Shown piece by piece: positions 21,112-29,142 of a DNA stretch of 33,729 nucleotides. A program made the translations under genes and the position numbers. The notes beneath the pieces were generated by a model that was not told the DNA's origin, made no database searches, and saw only the letters and a list, made by a program, of their open reading frames with translations. The stretch covers positions 1 to 33,729 of the forward strand of contig JAMPFU010000033.1 in the NCBI GenBank assembly GCA_023664385.1, given 5' to 3'. Source of the DNA: Clostridium sp. (GTDB lineage: Bacteria; Bacillota; Clostridia; Lachnospirales; Lachnospiraceae). Position 1 is the stretch's first letter. Each line of letters begins with the position of its first letter.

Positions 21112-22256
21112 ATGTCCAAAAAGCAATTGAGAATCACAACAAACCAGCCGGGAGTCTACTTAAATCAGCAAACTGGGAAGTATGACATTAAGTACTGTTA
21201 TACAGAATACAACCCTGCAACGAATGAAAAACATTACAAATCAAAGTGGATTTGTAGTATCAATTCGTATCAAGTAGCTGTAAATACCTTAGCAAAGATG
21301 AAGGCTGGTAAAATAGAATTGGAGAAAGAAGATATTACATTACAGGGAGCATTGGAATTGTGGTTGAATAAAGCCGCCGCCAACCAGTATAGCAATGCAA
21401 GCATCAGAAATACGAGGCAACAGTATAGTATGATTACAAAGTTTTGGATGCCGGAAACCAAACTCCGGTATATTACGGAAGATAGTTATCTGGAATTGAT
21501 TTCAAAATGCAGAGCTTATGGATATGCGGAGGAAACAGTTTACAATATTAATGCTTGTCTGAGGAAATTGGTAAAGTTAGCATATCGCAACCGGCAACTG
21601 AAAGAAAATCCTTTTGATTATTGCGACAACGCAAGAATTCAGCCTAAAACAGTAAAAGAAGTTATTACCTATGAGGAATATTTAAAATTAGATACATATT
21701 TTGCGGAGAATTCATTTTATAGGTTGGGGAAAAATTGTTATCCCAAGTATAGATTGCTTCTTCGAGTTTTGTATTGGACGGGCATACGCATTGGAGAAGC
21801 AATTGCGTTAGTATATAATGATTTTGAAAAATGTTATGGAAAGAAGATGCGTATTCATATTACAAAATCTTATAATTCTGCTTATAAATTATTGAAGGGA
21901 ACAAAGAATAACAAGACAAGGAAAATCCCATTGCCTAAGCCGGTAATGGAACTTTATATGAAATTGCTGCAGGAACATTTGGAAAACGAAGGCTCCATGG
22001 AAGATAGATTGTTTACTTGGGATCACGGTGTATGTACAGTTATGATTAAAAAGGCTTGTCGTGAGGTGGGAATTAGAGAATACAACTGCCATTCGTTTAG
22101 ACATACTTATATTATCTGATTCGTCAATGCGTGCCGATTTCCGTTATTGAACAAGTGAGTGGAGATACTCAGGCAACGATATTGAAACGATATTCCCATA
22201 TGTTTGAGGGAGATGAGGATATGGTATTGAAGGCGATGGGGAGGGTGGAAACTTGA
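21112..22256 (+). pseudogene. Tyrosine recombinase/integrase, frameshifted before the catalytic tyrosine
   Basis: The first frame (21112-22119) has an arm-binding N-terminus (QPGVYLNQQTGKYDIKYCYT), a core-binding domain at about 80-175 and the start of the catalytic domain, with the first arginine in GIRIGEAIAL and the HSFRHTY box, then stops at 22117. In the -1 frame the protein goes on: LIRQCVPISVIEQVSGDTQA, then ILKRYSHMFEGDEDMV with the nucleophile tyrosine, to a TGA at 22254. A one-base loss (or two-base gain) near 22108 explains this. Both halves together give about 380 residues, the length of Tn916/ICE-type integrases. The truncated protein lacks the tyrosine and must be inactive. AAGGAGG lies before the ATG. 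Confidence 0.88.
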
Positions 22257-24264: not shown

Positions 24265-24981
24265 ATGATTTATGTAGGTATTTGTGATGATTTAATGGAA
24301 CACAGACAAATGTTAAAGAATGTATGTGACAGATATTTCTCTGAACGTAGAATGAAATACGAAATTGTGTTATTTCAATCGGGAGAGGAAATGCTGACAT
24401 ATAAAGGTGAACACCTTATGCTGTTGCTTTTGGATATAGAGATGAAGGGGATTACAGGCATAGATGTAATGCACAAGCTTTTACACAGTGATAAGATTTG
24501 GAGAATACTTTTCGTGTCAAGCCATGATGAGCTCATGATTCAGACATTTGGATTAAAAACATTGGGCTACTGTTCAAAGCCTATAAAGTATGAAGATATA
24601 AGCAGATGGCTTGACATAGCCATTGAGGAAAGTGACTGCAATAAGGTTATTCGTTTTGAGGACCATACGTTAATTAATGTTGATGAAATCATTTATATTG
24701 AATCTGATGGACATTATATTCGTGTTCATACAATCAATGGTAGTCCGCTGTTTGTTATGGATATATTTGAAGCGTCAAAGCTTTTGAATCATACGAGTGT
24801 AGCTAGAATACATAAATCATACATGGTTAATTTTTCATACATCGATCAGCTGACTACAAGATTTGTAAAGCTTCAGGAAAGCTGCAACCAGCTTCCCGTT
24901 GGAAGAAACTATAAGAATGACGTTAAGGAGCGGTATCAGGCATACATATATGAAGTTGCAAAGAGGCGGTCAAGGTTTTAG
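24265..24981 (+). CDS. LytTR family response regulator (first pair)
   Basis: A 238-residue AgrA/LytR-type regulator. The receiver domain (1-120) has the acidic pair D8/D9 in YVGICDDLME, the phosphate-accepting D57 in LLLLDIEM, and K104-region LGYCSKPIKYED. The LytTR DNA-binding domain (about 135-235) starts IRFEDHTLINVDEIIYIESD and shows VARIHKSYMVNFSYID. The start ATG at 24265 follows GAGGAAG. It lies 23 bp before its presumed kinase. LytTR regulators bind paired direct repeats upstream of promoters, and such a pair lies at 26387-26419 behind the kinase gene. The neighbouring peptide gene is its most likely target, but the second regulator at 27215 and the stand-alone LytTR protein are alternatives. 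Confidence 0.92.
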   Translation: MIYVGICDDLMEHRQMLKNVCDRYFSERRMKYEIVLFQSGEEMLTYKGEHLMLLLLDIEMKGITGIDVMHKLLHSDKIWRILFVSSHDELMIQTFGLKTLGYCSKPIKYEDISRWLDIAIEESDCNKVIRFEDHTLINVDEIIYIESDGHYIRVHTINGSPLFVMDIFEASKLLNHTSVARIHKSYMVNFSYIDQLTTRFVKLQESCNQLPVGRNYKNDVKERYQAYIYEVAKRRSRF

Positions 24982-25004: not shown

Positions 25005-26303
25005 ATGCATACGTTTTTTGAAATTGGGTATTGCGTTGTAGACATTGTTAATTTTATTTTGGCATACAGATTTTTCTTTGGGGAGAAATTAAAAAAGAAT
25101 GTTGTTAAATATGGGTTCCTATTGCTTGGTATTATTATTTTACAGTGGATAAATATCAGCTTCATTGGGATAGAAAAGGATTTTTTAGATTTAATTTATG
25201 GCTTTGGCATCGTATTGATGTTAGGAAAAGGCAAAATAATAAGAAGATTAATCATATATTTTGATTCATATATTGTGTCTTCTGTTTTTGTCAGTGTTTT
25301 TAACTATAGTATCTGTTTTTTCTTAAAAAGAGATCAACAGCAGATGATACAAAATCCGGTTTACGGCATGATGATAAACTGTACGTTTCTGTTTTTTCTA
25401 ATAGCATATCTGCTTTATAAGAGAATTGCTCAAAAAGATAATCATTCCCTGATTGATTTTTCAACAGATCAACAAACTATATTATCCGTAGCATTATTTT
25501 GTTGTATGCTTATCATGAGCATATCACAAAATACATTTTATTATTCGGACATGCCATTAAAGGTCAAGAATTTTTTTGGTATGCTAATGTCCCTGCTTTG
25601 CACCTTTTTTATTATTGTGCTTGTGTGGCTTTCACATTCCATAAGGACGAGAGACCGGTATATGCATGAAAGAGAATTAGCAAACCTAAGAATGTATGAG
25701 CAGGAGAAACGGTTTGTCGTAATAGAAAACTCAAATGAGGAGATCAGAAAATTCAAGCATGATGTTAAGGGACATATGATTGTGCTTCACAATTATATAA
25801 CACAAAAGGATTGTGAAGGGGCAGAGGAATACTTAAATAAGATTGGAGTTAAGCTTGAAAATGACGGAAGTGGAAGCTATACGGGGATTGTGGTGCTGGA
25901 TGCAATCATTGATAACTATAGAAAGGAAATGGTTTCAAAGAATATTGAATTTCATTGGGATGGAAAATGCAGTCTTTCAGAGACGGATGTTGATTTGTTT
26001 GATTTGTGTACTGTGTTTGAGAACATTCTTGTAAATGCAATAGAGGCATGTGAAAAAATAGCTTCACACAGGGTTGTACGTATTTCCGTACAAATGATAA
26101 ATAAGAAAATATGTATTATTGAGAAAAATACGATGAGTGGAAATTTGATTTTAGATAAGGCAGGTGAACTGGTTACAACAAAGCCTGATAAGAAAAATCA
26201 TGGCTTAGGAACGAAAAATATAAGGGACGTTGTTCTAAAACATGATGGGATGATAAGATTTGGAAGCGAGGATGGATGGTTTGAGATAGCACTGCAAATA
26301 TAA
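25005..26303 (+). CDS. GHKL sensor histidine kinase, AgrC-like (first pair)
   Basis: A 432-residue kinase. Six or so membrane segments fill residues 1-210 in the manner of AgrC-type peptide receptors, with no large outside domain. A coiled stretch precedes the phosphoacceptor region FKHDVKGHMIVLHNYI with H252. The ATPase domain of GHKL type follows, with LCTVFENILVNAIEACEKIA as N box and KNHGLGTKNIRDVV as G2 box. The ATG at 25005 follows GATGGGGAATATGAC. The topology suggests it senses a membrane-accessible peptide or lipid. No agrB or agrD lies nearby; the 17-residue peptide gene downstream is a candidate source of the signal. The transcript ends at the terminator at 26325. Confidence 0.9.
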   Translation: MHTFFEIGYCVVDIVNFILAYRFFFGEKLKKNVVKYGFLLLGIIILQWINISFIGIEKDFLDLIYGFGIVLMLGKGKIIRRLIIYFDSYIVSSVFVSVFNYSICFFLKRDQQQMIQNPVYGMMINCTFLFFLIAYLLYKRIAQKDNHSLIDFSTDQQTILSVALFCCMLIMSISQNTFYYSDMPLKVKNFFGMLMSLLCTFFIIVLVWLSHSIRTRDRYMHERELANLRMYEQEKRFVVIENSNEEIRKFKHDVKGHMIVLHNYITQKDCEGAEEYLNKIGVKLENDGSGSYTGIVVLDAIIDNYRKEMVSKNIEFHWDGKCSLSETDVDLFDLCTVFENILVNAIEACEKIASHRVVRISVQMINKKICIIEKNTMSGNLILDKAGELVTTKPDKKNHGLGTKNIRDVVLKHDGMIRFGSEDGWFEIALQI

Positions 26304-26324
26304 AAGATTTTGAAAATAAAAATG

Positions 26325-26367
26325 AAAAACAGGGATTAAATGATAGAAATTTAATCTCTGTTTTTTT
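26325..26367 (+). terminator. Terminator after the first kinase gene
   Basis: AAAAACAG-g-GATTAAA (26325-26339) pairs with TTTAATC-t-CTGTTTTT, followed by more T. The A/T-rich ends let it act on both strands. It separates the kinase gene from the peptide unit. Confidence 0.85.
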
Positions 26368-26386: not shown

Positions 26387-26455
26387 TGTCGTTTGTGCAG
26401 AAAAAGTGTCGTTTGTGCACGGACAATTGCAAGGTTCTTTTAATCCTTATACCAT
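26387..26455 (+). promoter_or_regulatory. Two LytTR-box-like direct repeats and promoter for the peptide gene
   Basis: TGTCGTTTGTGCA occurs at 26387-26399 and again, identical, at 26407-26419, 20 bp apart, two helical turns. The repeats include CGTTTGT, close to the GTTNRK heart of LytTR/AgrA boxes, which also act in pairs about 21 bp apart. Eight bases later come TTGCAA (26427-26432) and a weak -10 TACCAT (26450-26455), with a 17-bp spacer. A weak promoter with a regulator pair ending just before the -35 fits activation. Confidence 0.7.
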
Positions 26456-26507
26456 GAGATTACAGGCAGGTTTGAACTGTATTTTCATGGTAAAGGAGGG
26501 AAAGAAA

Positions 26508-26561
26508 ATGGCATTTTTTGGTTTGAATTTAACGTGGTTTACTAGATGGCTTTTTAAGTAA
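26508..26561 (+). CDS. 17-residue aromatic cationic peptide, predicted LytTR-controlled
   Basis: ATG at 26508 follows AAGGAGGG by seven bases, as good a binding site as any in the window. The product MAFFGLNLTWFTRWLFK has six aromatic residues (four Phe, two Trp), two positive and no negative charges. The frame is open further upstream, but those codons lie over the direct repeats and the promoter, before the expected start near 26462, so they are not translated. The gene has its own promoter, paired regulator sites and a strong terminator. That arrangement is hard to explain as chance. A secreted or membrane-active signal or bacteriocin-like peptide, sensed by the AgrC-like kinase or its neighbour, is my inference. 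No export or maturation gene is evident. Confidence 0.65.
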   Translation: MAFFGLNLTWFTRWLFK

Positions 26562-26575
26562 TAAAAGATAAATTT

Positions 26576-26624
26576 AAAGGGCTGCGAAATAAACTGTAAA
26601 ACATGATAGTTTCACAGCCCTTTT
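26576..26624 (+). terminator. Terminator after the peptide gene
   Basis: AAAGGGCTG-c-GAAA (26576-26589) pairs with TTTC-a-CAGCCCTTTT (26611-26624), and an inner ACT/AGT pair extends it. The stem is long, GC-rich and ends in TTTT, so the peptide gene is a closed unit. Confidence 0.9.
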
Positions 26625-26645: not shown

Positions 26646-27098
26646 ATGTATGAGGAGAATACAAACATAATTAAACCATATGAAAATAGCGGGCTGGTCA
26701 TTATCGCAGTGTGGCATCATAATTTGGCACGGTTATATACAAAGGATATATTATTTATATCCAGAAATAAGTATAAAAGTAGGGTACATGTTATTGAAGA
26801 AGCCATACATTTTGGATTTGAAAAAAAGGTTTCATGTAAAATGAGACTGGATGAAATGTATGAAATCTTAAAGGATTATGGATTTGAATATGCACATAAC
26901 AGCTATTTGGTAAACCTTAGATATGTTATAAGAAAGACAAACACGGAATTGGAATTAATTGATGGCACACATCTGTCAATCTCCAGGACAAAGGAGAAAA
27001 CCTTTGCAGATGCTTTGGTAAGATCAGATAAAAAATTAAAAAAGCACAGTAATGAAATGAATTATAAGAGAGTATATGAGTCCGAACGGTTTACATAA
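26646..27098 (+). CDS. Stand-alone LytTR DNA-binding protein
   Basis: A 150-residue protein. An N-terminal 20 residues without known domain precede a LytTR domain at about 25-130: DILFISRNKYKSRVHVIEEA, a helix RLDEMYEILKDYGFEYAHNS, YLVNLRYVIR and a final ELELIDGTHLSISRTKEKTF. No receiver domain is present, so phosphorylation cannot control it directly. It may compete with or assist the full regulators on the same boxes. The ATG at 26646 is preceded by only AAAAGG. It follows the peptide gene's terminator and may be reached by read-through from it. No kinase gene is directly attached. Confidence 0.82.
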   Translation: MYEENTNIIKPYENSGLVIIAVWHHNLARLYTKDILFISRNKYKSRVHVIEEAIHFGFEKKVSCKMRLDEMYEILKDYGFEYAHNSYLVNLRYVIRKTNTELELIDGTHLSISRTKEKTFADALVRSDKKLKKHSNEMNYKRVYESERFT

Positions 27099-28830: not shown

Positions 28831-29142
28831 ATGTATGATAAAAATGAGTGCGGGAAACGATTAAGGCAGCTTCGAAAGGCAAAAGGAAAGACACAGCAGG
28901 GTGTTGCAAGAGAGGTCGGATTATCCATAGACACCCTGTGTAAGGTTGAACGGGGGCAAAGAAGTCCGTCTGTCTTTGTGGTGGATTTACTGAGCAGATA
29001 TTATCAGACAACGACCGATTATATTATAAATGGTCGTATCTACAGTGAGCAGGAGACAAAGGAAATGTCAAAATCCATACTGGAACAAAAGTGTGATGTA
29101 GTGGAACAACTGATAGGTGATATCAGGGAGTTAATTACATAA
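28831..29142 (+). CDS. XRE family helix-turn-helix regulator
   Basis: A 103-residue protein. The HTH_3 domain covers about 8-65: GKRLRQLRKAKGKTQQGVAR, EVGLSIDTLCKVERGQRSPS and LLSRYYQTTTDYIINGRI. A helical tail of 35 residues (EQETKEMSKSILEQKCDVVE) probably holds the dimer together. The ATG at 28831 follows ATAGGGAGACAAAAAT. Regulators of this size commonly repress their own operon or a neighbouring gene; the DUF4231-like gene 138 bp downstream is the nearest candidate. No palindromic operator stood out near its start. Confidence 0.88.
   Translation: MYDKNECGKRLRQLRKAKGKTQQGVAREVGLSIDTLCKVERGQRSPSVFVVDLLSRYYQTTTDYIINGRIYSEQETKEMSKSILEQKCDVVEQLIGDIRELIT

What the first reader, a model, noticed from the sequence alone, without database searches (positions are those of the whole stretch)
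26387..26624. Self-contained unit for a 17-residue aromatic peptide under paired LytTR-like boxes, inside a two-component island
Two identical 13-bp direct repeats exactly 20 bp apart end eight bases before a weak promoter. Then follow a perfect ribosome binding site, the 17-codon gene (MAFFGLNLTWFTRWLFK) and a strong terminator. It sits directly behind an AgrC-like kinase/LytTR regulator pair and before a stand-alone LytTR protein and a second pair, yet no agrB/agrD is present. The Trp/Phe-rich cationic peptide could be a leaderless pheromone or membrane-active peptide whose gene is switched on by one of the regulators, a quorum-sensing logic without the known maturation genes. The boxes, promoter, RBS, frame and terminator are seen; LytTR box behaviour is known; signal function is inferred.
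Basis: partly seen in the sequence, partly recalled or inferred. Interest (0 to 1): 0.88.

Follow-up and report, generated by a model that had tools for sequence, protein, structure and literature searches.

The report
Tiny tryptophan-peptide signal beside AgrC-like kinase
A gut bacterium carries a 17-residue peptide gene, switched by paired regulator boxes and sitting next to its likely receptor kinase; similar tiny tryptophan-rich peptides sit beside many related kinases in its family, which suggests an unrecognised kind of bacterial cell-to-cell signal that may switch on weapons used against other bacteria.

Summary
The unit is real. Paired boxes (26387-26419), promoter, ribosome site and 17-codon ORF (26508-26561) recur behind the orthologous kinase in three related species. 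The ORF keeps M-x-F-F-x3-L-x-W-x3-W-L but is the most variable part of the transcript. In 37 genomes of the genus, kinase ortholog and boxes occur in exactly the same four. Each of these has 6-17 box sites, before a type VII secretion operon, WXG100 genes, RTX proteins with a C39 exporter, ABC operons and an unassigned conserved RNA.

In one genus near-identical boxes precede a bacteriocin-like gene. Best reading: a leaderless inducing peptide for the neighbouring kinase, with autoinduction and a LytTR-only co-regulator, working like the gallocin four-component system but without a double-glycine leader or AgrB. Secretion and receptor activation are inferred.

The parts
24265..24981 (+). LytTR response regulator, likely binder of the paired boxes
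   Evidence: Pfam Response_reg + LytTR; 82-98% identical orthologs next to the kinase in the 3 other box-bearing genomes
25005..26303 (+). AgrC-like membrane histidine kinase, likely peptide receptor
   Evidence: HATPase_c_5, six TM-like hydropathy peaks, best NCBIfam match AgrC at 44.7 bits, far below its cut-off of 500; sensor half 66-85% vs catalytic half 83-95% identical among 4 species
26324..26366 (+). intrinsic terminator of the regulator-kinase operon
   Evidence: terminator scan; T-run kept in 4 of 4 genomes
26387..26419 (+). paired LytTR-like boxes, 20-bp period
26427..26455 (+). promoter: TTGCAA, 17 nt, TACCAT
   Evidence: sequence; TTG exactly 7 nt after box 2 at 21 of 43 box sites
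26493..26500 (+). ribosome-binding site AAGGAGGG
   Evidence: GGAGGG core kept in 4 of 4 orthologous units
26508..26561 (+). 17-codon Trp/Phe-rich peptide gene (MAFFGLNLTWFTRWLFK), proposed inducing peptide
   Evidence: orthologs in 4 of 4 kinase-bearing genomes of the genus; analogous peptides beside related kinases
26577..26623 (+). conserved RNA hairpin between peptide and LytTR-only gene; no conserved U-tract
26646..27098 (+). LytTR-only DNA-binding protein, possible BlpS-like co-regulator, possibly co-transcribed with the peptide
   Evidence: Pfam LytTR; present in 4 of 4 genomes; only 84 nt separate it from the peptide stop codon
27215..28694 (+). second RR-LytTR and kinase pair, neighbour not needed for the unit
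   Evidence: no room for it in G004, where the next listed gene starts 692 nt after the LytTR-only gene

Best explanation
It is a four-component peptide-signalling unit. The kinase (25005-26303) senses a short unmodified peptide encoded right behind it. The phosphorylated LytTR regulator (24265-24981) binds the paired boxes and switches on the peptide gene itself (autoinduction), the LytTR-only co-regulator and a regulon of interbacterial-competition functions (type VII secretion, WXG100 proteins, RTX proteins, exporters, an RNA). The peptide is leaderless: no AgrB, no double-glycine leader. It is one member of a set of 11-28-residue Trp-rich peptides that accompany one sector of AgrC-like kinases in this family (Lachnospiraceae by the record titles of close relatives). 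Shown by computation: the gene unit, boxes, box sites, co-occurrence and the wider kinase-repeat-peptide association. Inferred: box binding by this regulator, export, and receptor activation.
For: Synteny and conservation of peptide, boxes, promoter and RBS in four species. Kinase orthologs (>=77%) in 4 of 37 genus genomes, own included, and boxes in exactly those 4 of the 61 genomes searched, which include all 37 of the genus; 0 of 396 other sampled family genomes carry the boxes at <=1 mismatch. 43 box sites in four genomes, reversed control 0, in front of a T7SS core operon, WXG100 genes, RTX proteins and exporters. Tiny W-ORFs 3' of related kinases: 34 of 94 on the kinase strand, 0 of 94 on the other; shuffled sequence mean 3.85, maximum 7 over 40 shuffles. 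In the 60 loci fetched after the pattern was seen: 17 vs 0, mean 2.0, maximum 6 over 200 shuffles. The best repeat upstream has a 20-21 bp period in 19 of the 24 hand-picked peptide genes (of 34) that have a repeat of >=9/11. AgrB, by a home-made profile within the fetched flanks, beside 4 of 94 such kinases. 30 of 31 peptide-linked kinases fall in a tree sector with none of the 17 AgrB-linked ones. In G248 a near-identical box pair precedes a double-glycine bacteriocin-like gene followed by a C39-peptidase ABC exporter.
Against: No expression, peptidomic or binding data. No leader, signal peptide or dedicated exporter next to the gene was noticed, so export is unexplained. Within this genus substitutions in the ORF are mostly non-synonymous, which also fits weak constraint. 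60 of 94 kinases show no such ORF by the automatic rule, and several of the 34 that do are doubtful. Outside the family, 1 of 27 kinase loci has a W-bearing tiny ORF on the kinase strand and 1 of 27 on the other, i.e. no excess. The tree sector has modest support, 0.70. 10 of the 34 hand-picked peptide genes lack a clear upstream repeat. 17 of 43 box sites have no TTG 3-10 nt downstream, and for two sites of this genome no gene was found. Which of the LytTR proteins binds the boxes is not tested.
Confidence: 0.6

Rival explanations
1. The peptide is a membrane-active effector, like staphylococcal phenol-soluble modulins or delta-toxin: leaderless, amphipathic, made under a LytTR regulator, acting on membranes rather than as the signal.
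Against: The gene sits directly beside the kinase in many genera while downstream genes differ, which fits a kinase partner better than a toxin. Net charge varies from -6 to +3. In G230 and G175 the box pattern (<=2 mismatches) finds only the peptide gene.
Confidence: 0.17
2. The peptide stays in the producing cell as a small membrane partner that inhibits or tunes the neighbouring kinase (negative feedback), not an extracellular signal.
For: No leader or exporter seen beside the gene; adjacency to the kinase; amphipathic tendency.
Against: In this genus peptide and sensor half vary more than UTR and catalytic half, as expected for signal-receptor pairs but less for an internal partner. The T7SS and bacteriocin-like genes under the boxes fit known inducing-peptide regulons.
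Confidence: 0.13
3. The ORF is a leader (attenuator) whose translation controls the downstream LytTR gene through the hairpin.
For: Two Trp and two Phe codons conserved in the four species; conserved hairpin between ORF and the LytTR gene; only 84 nt between them.
Against: Hairpin lacks a conserved U-tract. In other genera the same kind of peptide is followed by different genes or by genes on the other strand, while the kinase is the constant neighbour.
Confidence: 0.07
4. The ORF is a chance reading frame in a conserved 5' region.
For: Short; in this genus the ORF is less conserved than its flanks and lacks synonymous bias.
Against: RBS, start and frame kept in 4 of 4 species. P 0.03 and 0.016 for keeping both Trp, the frame and the hydrophobic core in the two more distant pairs, 0.30 in the closest. 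Strand-specific enrichment across genera. 3 synonymous to 1 non-synonymous in L184/L188.
Confidence: 0.03

Closest known systems
Gallocin four-component system of Streptococcus gallolyticus (GSP, BlpH, BlpR, BlpS), PMC8545106 (abstract and passages seen)
   Same: Inducing peptide, membrane kinase, LytTR regulator plus a LytTR-only protein; one operator of about 30 bp (33 bp here) in the regulated promoters; controls a weapon against other bacteria
   Different: GSP is taken to be cut from a precursor after a double-glycine motif; here the whole ORF is 17 codons, with no leader and no exporter seen beside it; targets are mainly T7SS/RTX/ABC operons
agr system (AgrBDCA)
   Same: Kinase resembles AgrC over most of its length (44.7 bits, below cut-off); LytTR regulator and direct repeats before promoters (AgrA: PMC4227749, passages); an RNA and exported proteins in the regulon; Agr is named in the control of S. 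aureus T7SSb (PMC10765036, passages seen)
   Different: No AgrB at the locus; no Cys in the four peptides of this genus, so no thiolactone; no acidic C-tail (AgrD features recalled)
Phenol-soluble modulins / delta-toxin (family properties recalled)
   Same: Leaderless, about 20 residues, amphipathic, LytTR-controlled
   Different: Placed next to its own kinase; Trp-rich; no lytic activity known
RRNPP pheromones such as SHP and ComS (recalled)
   Same: Very short hydrophobic peptides without a dedicated modification gene
   Different: Those act on cytosolic Rgg/Rap-type receptors; here a membrane kinase is the constant partner

Membership tests
agr (AgrBDCA) autoinducer system | AgrB processing protease at the locus | tested here: not met
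   AgrB only at C7 and C44 of this genome; by a home-made profile, AgrB beside 4 of 94 related kinases
agr (AgrBDCA) autoinducer system | AgrD precursor with Cys/Ser for a (thio)lactone and C-terminal tail | tested here: not met
   17-18 residues, no Cys in the four orthologs; 5 of 34 wider hand-picked peptides contain Cys
agr (AgrBDCA) autoinducer system | AgrC-type kinase | tested here: inconclusive
   NCBIfam AgrC 44.7 bits over residues 34-413, cut-off 500
Blp/ComCDE-type three- or four-component system | membrane kinase plus LytTR response regulator | tested here: met
Blp/ComCDE-type three- or four-component system | inducing peptide with double-glycine leader | tested here: not met
   whole ORF is 17 codons; the upstream in-frame ATG is blocked by stops in G020 and G004 (reading of the sequences)
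Blp/ComCDE-type three- or four-component system | shared operator before the regulated promoters, including the peptide gene | tested here: met
   43 sites in four genomes; TTG exactly 7 nt after the boxes in 21 of 43, less regular in the rest; regulation itself not tested
Blp/ComCDE-type three- or four-component system | LytTR-only regulator (BlpS-like) | tested here: met
   26646-27098 LytTR, 4 of 4 genomes
Blp/ComCDE-type three- or four-component system | extracellular peptide activates the kinase | not testable with these tools
   needs an experiment
phenol-soluble modulins | leaderless amphipathic helix | tested here: inconclusive
phenol-soluble modulins | membrane lysis and Pmt-type export | not tested
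   no assay; exporter not searched
RRNPP quorum sensing | cytosolic HTH-TPR receptor next to the peptide gene | tested here: not met
   the HTH protein seen nearby is 103 aa, HTH only (28831-29142); too short for such a receptor (length argument recalled)
attenuator leader peptide | hairpin with U-tract terminator after the ORF | tested here: not met
   T-run absent in G003 and G004; the scan could not judge it because of its loop limit

The most novel reading that the evidence does not exclude
Lachnospiraceae use a distinct class of quorum-sensing signals: unprocessed, leaderless 12-28-residue Trp-rich peptides (typically W-x-[WYL]-[IL]-x-x-[IL]-[FL]-G near the end), each paired with its own AgrC-like kinase and a LytTR operator of two repeats 20-21 bp apart. 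It would stand beside cyclic AIPs, double-glycine peptides and RRNPP pheromones, and it commands type VII secretion in one clade and a bacteriocin-like locus in another.
Probability: 0.5. Interest if true: 0.93.

Novelty: new variant of a known kind. Interest (0 to 1): 0.86.

Why it matters
Lachnospiraceae are a major family of gut bacteria (general knowledge), and their genomes hold many AgrC-like kinases whose signals are, as far as I know, mostly unidentified. If right, this names candidate signals for dozens of kinases at once, cheap to synthesise and test. It also gives a testable regulatory handle on type VII secretion in this clade and shows that a kinase-sensed pheromone can exist without AgrB or a double-glycine leader, which raises the question of how such peptides leave the cell. 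ORFs this short are commonly skipped by annotation (general knowledge).

Tried and rejected
Attenuator reading: weakened, see rivals. AgrD-like reading: rejected (no Cys, no AgrB at the locus). A longer in-frame ORF starting inside the -10 element (reading of the sequences): rejected, since stops interrupt it in G020 and G004 and the frame shifts in G003. Second kinase/regulator pair as the driver: not needed (G004 has no room for it). Tiny peptides beside the more distant paralogous kinases of the same genus: among 26 loci (L010-L035) the strict-RBS scan gave one hit of this look (L025, on the strand opposite to the kinase). Extension beyond the family: 27 kinase loci of the same profile from other families gave one W-bearing tiny ORF on the kinase strand and one on the other. 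Search for same-genus orthologs of another peptide gave only the pair already held, 2 of 4 genomes. Box search in four other genera found sites in 3 of 4: G230 1, G175 1, G248 4, G299 0. Rfam: no match in the window or at the conserved RNA; the two L10-leader hits lie elsewhere in L079 and L090. RNAalifold of that RNA: 0 of 47 pairs with both sides changed, so its structure is unproven. Hairpin after the peptide: one pair is C-G in G004, U-A in G003 and a C/A mismatch in G000 and G020 (reading), so covariation is thin; the whole leader folds no better than shuffles (z -1.29). Structure prediction and fold search were not used.

Selection notes. The automatic rule was set after the first peptides had been seen; therefore repeats it on 60 loci fetched later (a stricter motif rule there gave 9 of 60 vs 0, shuffles mean 0.42, maximum 3). 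The list of 34 peptides used was picked by eye: 28 loci shared with the 34 automatic hits (L124, L134 and L144 with another start or frame; L134 entered without its first 11 residues), 6 automatic hits dropped (L135, L151, L169, L202, L206, L209), 6 added (L121, L125, L157, L163, L170, L180). Its composition and repeat statistics are descriptive. Four of the 94 loci are the four species of this genus; without them the 20-21 bp count is 16 of 20. Of the 19 repeats with that period, 12 hold CGTT as printed. Identities by region used ORF borders shifted by 2 nt; one search has the right ones. The 17 sites of G003 include two overlapping ones (a triple box).

Literature: eight searches of an open-licence PubMed Central library returned no listing that describes such peptides; subscription papers and preprints are not held, so absence from print is not shown. 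Of the papers, I saw passages of PMC4227749, PMC8545106 (with abstract), PMC10765036, PMC13289728 and PMC9426450; all others only as search listings.

Full report
What is there. The window holds a LytTR response regulator (24265-24981), an AgrC-like kinase (25005-26303), a terminator (26324-26366), paired boxes TGTCGTTTGTGCA-N7-TGTCGTTTGTGCA (26387-26419), a promoter (26427-26455), a ribosome site, a 17-codon ORF (26508-26561), a hairpin (26577-26623) and a LytTR-only gene (26646-27098). The LytTR-only gene may therefore be read from the same promoter.

Conservation in the genus. In 37 genomes of the genus the kinase has orthologs at >=77% identity in three besides this one (G020 90%, G004 81%, G003 77%). 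All four have boxes, promoter, RBS and peptide behind the kinase: MAFFGLNLTWFTRWLFK, MAFFVLDLTWLTRWLLWW, MAFFGFNLGWLTKWLFGR, MSFFDISLRWLFAWLLK. The ORF is the least conserved part of the transcript (61-85% identity, against 76-93% for the 5' region and 81-98% for the hairpin), and most codon changes are non-synonymous. The frame, W10, W14 and seven hydrophobic positions persist; random placement of the same changes keeps them with P 0.30, 0.03 and 0.016 for G020, G004 and G003. The kinase's sensor half is also less conserved (66-85%) than its catalytic half (83-95%).

Regulon. The paired box at <=1 mismatch occurs in exactly those four of 61 genomes (all 37 of the genus plus 24 from other families of the order) and in 0 of 396 other sampled genomes of the family. 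At <=3 mismatches there are 43 sites (13, 17, 7 and 6 in G000, G003, G004 and G020), reversed control 0. TTG starts exactly 7 nt after the boxes in 21 of 43; 19 also have TANNNT 16-18 nt further on; 17 have no TTG at 3-10 nt. Downstream in this genome: a type VII secretion core operon with a 537-aa protein without Pfam match, an FHA protein, a ParA-like ATPase, YukD and a 1515-aa FtsK/SpoIIIE ATPase (C50); two operons opening with a WXG100 protein (C22); RTX-repeat proteins with a C39-peptidase ABC exporter and HlyD (C33) and a 1199-aa RTX protein (C44); two operons with ABC ATPases, each opening with a small, by eye secreted, protein (C12, C5); a lipoprotein by eye (C2); a conserved noncoding RNA (C1); and two sites without an evident gene (C55, C46). 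YukD is found in all four box genomes and in 4 of the 33 others, 3 of these above the cut-off.

The wider family. A profile of the kinase found relatives in 11 other genomes among 397 of the family at E<=1e-30. Beside several lie tiny RBS-preceded ORFs of the same look, such as MIASIDWSWLWKLFG, MPYGLNWDWLIGLITGNGGKEEE and MYYSLDVWEWLAGIFFGDEEE; in two of those genera a TGTCGTT..TG box pair precedes them. A broader profile matched 137 of 397 genomes at E<=1e-45. In 94 kinase loci (selected by kinase score; the four of this genus included), 34 have a W-bearing hydrophobic ORF of 11-28 codons within 450 nt 3' on the kinase strand, 0 on the other strand; shuffled sequence gives a mean of 3.85, maximum 7 over 40 shuffles. 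For the 60 loci fetched after the pattern was seen: 17, 0, mean 2.0, maximum 6 over 200 shuffles. Between kinase and peptide, 24 of 34 hand-picked peptide genes have a repeat of >=9/11; in 19 the best period over 12-35 is 20 or 21, 12 of the 19 with a CGTT core as in LytTR boxes (box consensus recalled). AgrB, by a home-made profile, lies beside 4 of the 94. In a tree of 143 kinases, 30 of 31 peptide-linked ones lie in one sector of 72 tips (support 0.70) without any of the 17 AgrB-linked ones; label changes 19 against a minimum of 23 in 500 shuffles. Outside the family, 27 kinase loci of the same profile gave one W-bearing tiny ORF on the kinase strand and one on the other. No NCBIfam model matched the seven longer peptides given to it, and no Pfam model the ten given to it, at E<=1.

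Function. In G248 near-identical box pairs (2 mismatches to the pattern) stand before its own peptide gene, before a double-glycine bacteriocin-like gene (by eye) followed by a C39-peptidase ABC exporter, and before a secreted-looking 338-aa protein; a fourth site has no clear gene. Genes after the peptides differ from genus to genus, so the kinase is the constant partner. The anatomy matches the gallocin four-component system: inducing peptide GSP, kinase BlpH, LytTR regulator BlpR and LytTR-only BlpS, which represses gallocin genes and shares a 30-bp operator (PMC8545106, abstract and passages). I therefore conclude: works like an inducing-peptide system (0.6), but not a member of Blp/ComCDE (no leader) nor of agr (no AgrB, no AgrD-type peptide). 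Export and the mature form are unknown. Rivals: PSM-like effector, internal kinase partner, leader peptide, chance ORF.

Limits. Literature searches were limited to an open-licence library.

Noticed in passing
L062:534-728 (G000 C1:61594-61788); orthologs L074:684-878, L079:7687-7881 (-), L090:7895-8089 (-): A noncoding stretch right behind a box pair, ending in a terminator-like hairpin with T-run, 92% mean column identity in four species, no Rfam match there; looks like a regulatory RNA under the same control (an RNAIII-like role is a guess; no covariation).
   Followed up: partly
L068:1291-4887 and L064:134-7468: RTX calcium-binding-repeat proteins, one set with a C39-peptidase ABC exporter and HlyD-type protein, behind the LytTR boxes; to my knowledge unusual for a Gram-positive gut bacterium.
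   Followed up: no
G003 contigs C6, C14, C15, C21, C26, C32, C33, C36: Eight contigs of G003 end 105-252 bases after a box pair, as if long repeated sequence that the assembly could not resolve follows many boxes.
   Followed up: no
L118:1038-1100 and 1828-1884: Two tandem copies of kinase end plus peptide gene (MVFYICDLTDWLKWILGIHK and MVFYICDLTDWLKHIFGF) that differ at the peptide's C-terminal end: a possible specificity duplication.
   Followed up: no
L070:743-775 (G000 C55:71042) and L077:647-679 (G020 C16:17646): Box pairs conserved in two species with no evident forward gene downstream; possibly antisense or relic sites.
   Followed up: no
window 21112-22119 and 28831-29142: A phage-integrase-family protein (Pfam PF00589, 39 bits) upstream and a small HTH_3 protein downstream of the regulator island; the island may be or have been mobile.
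   Followed up: partly
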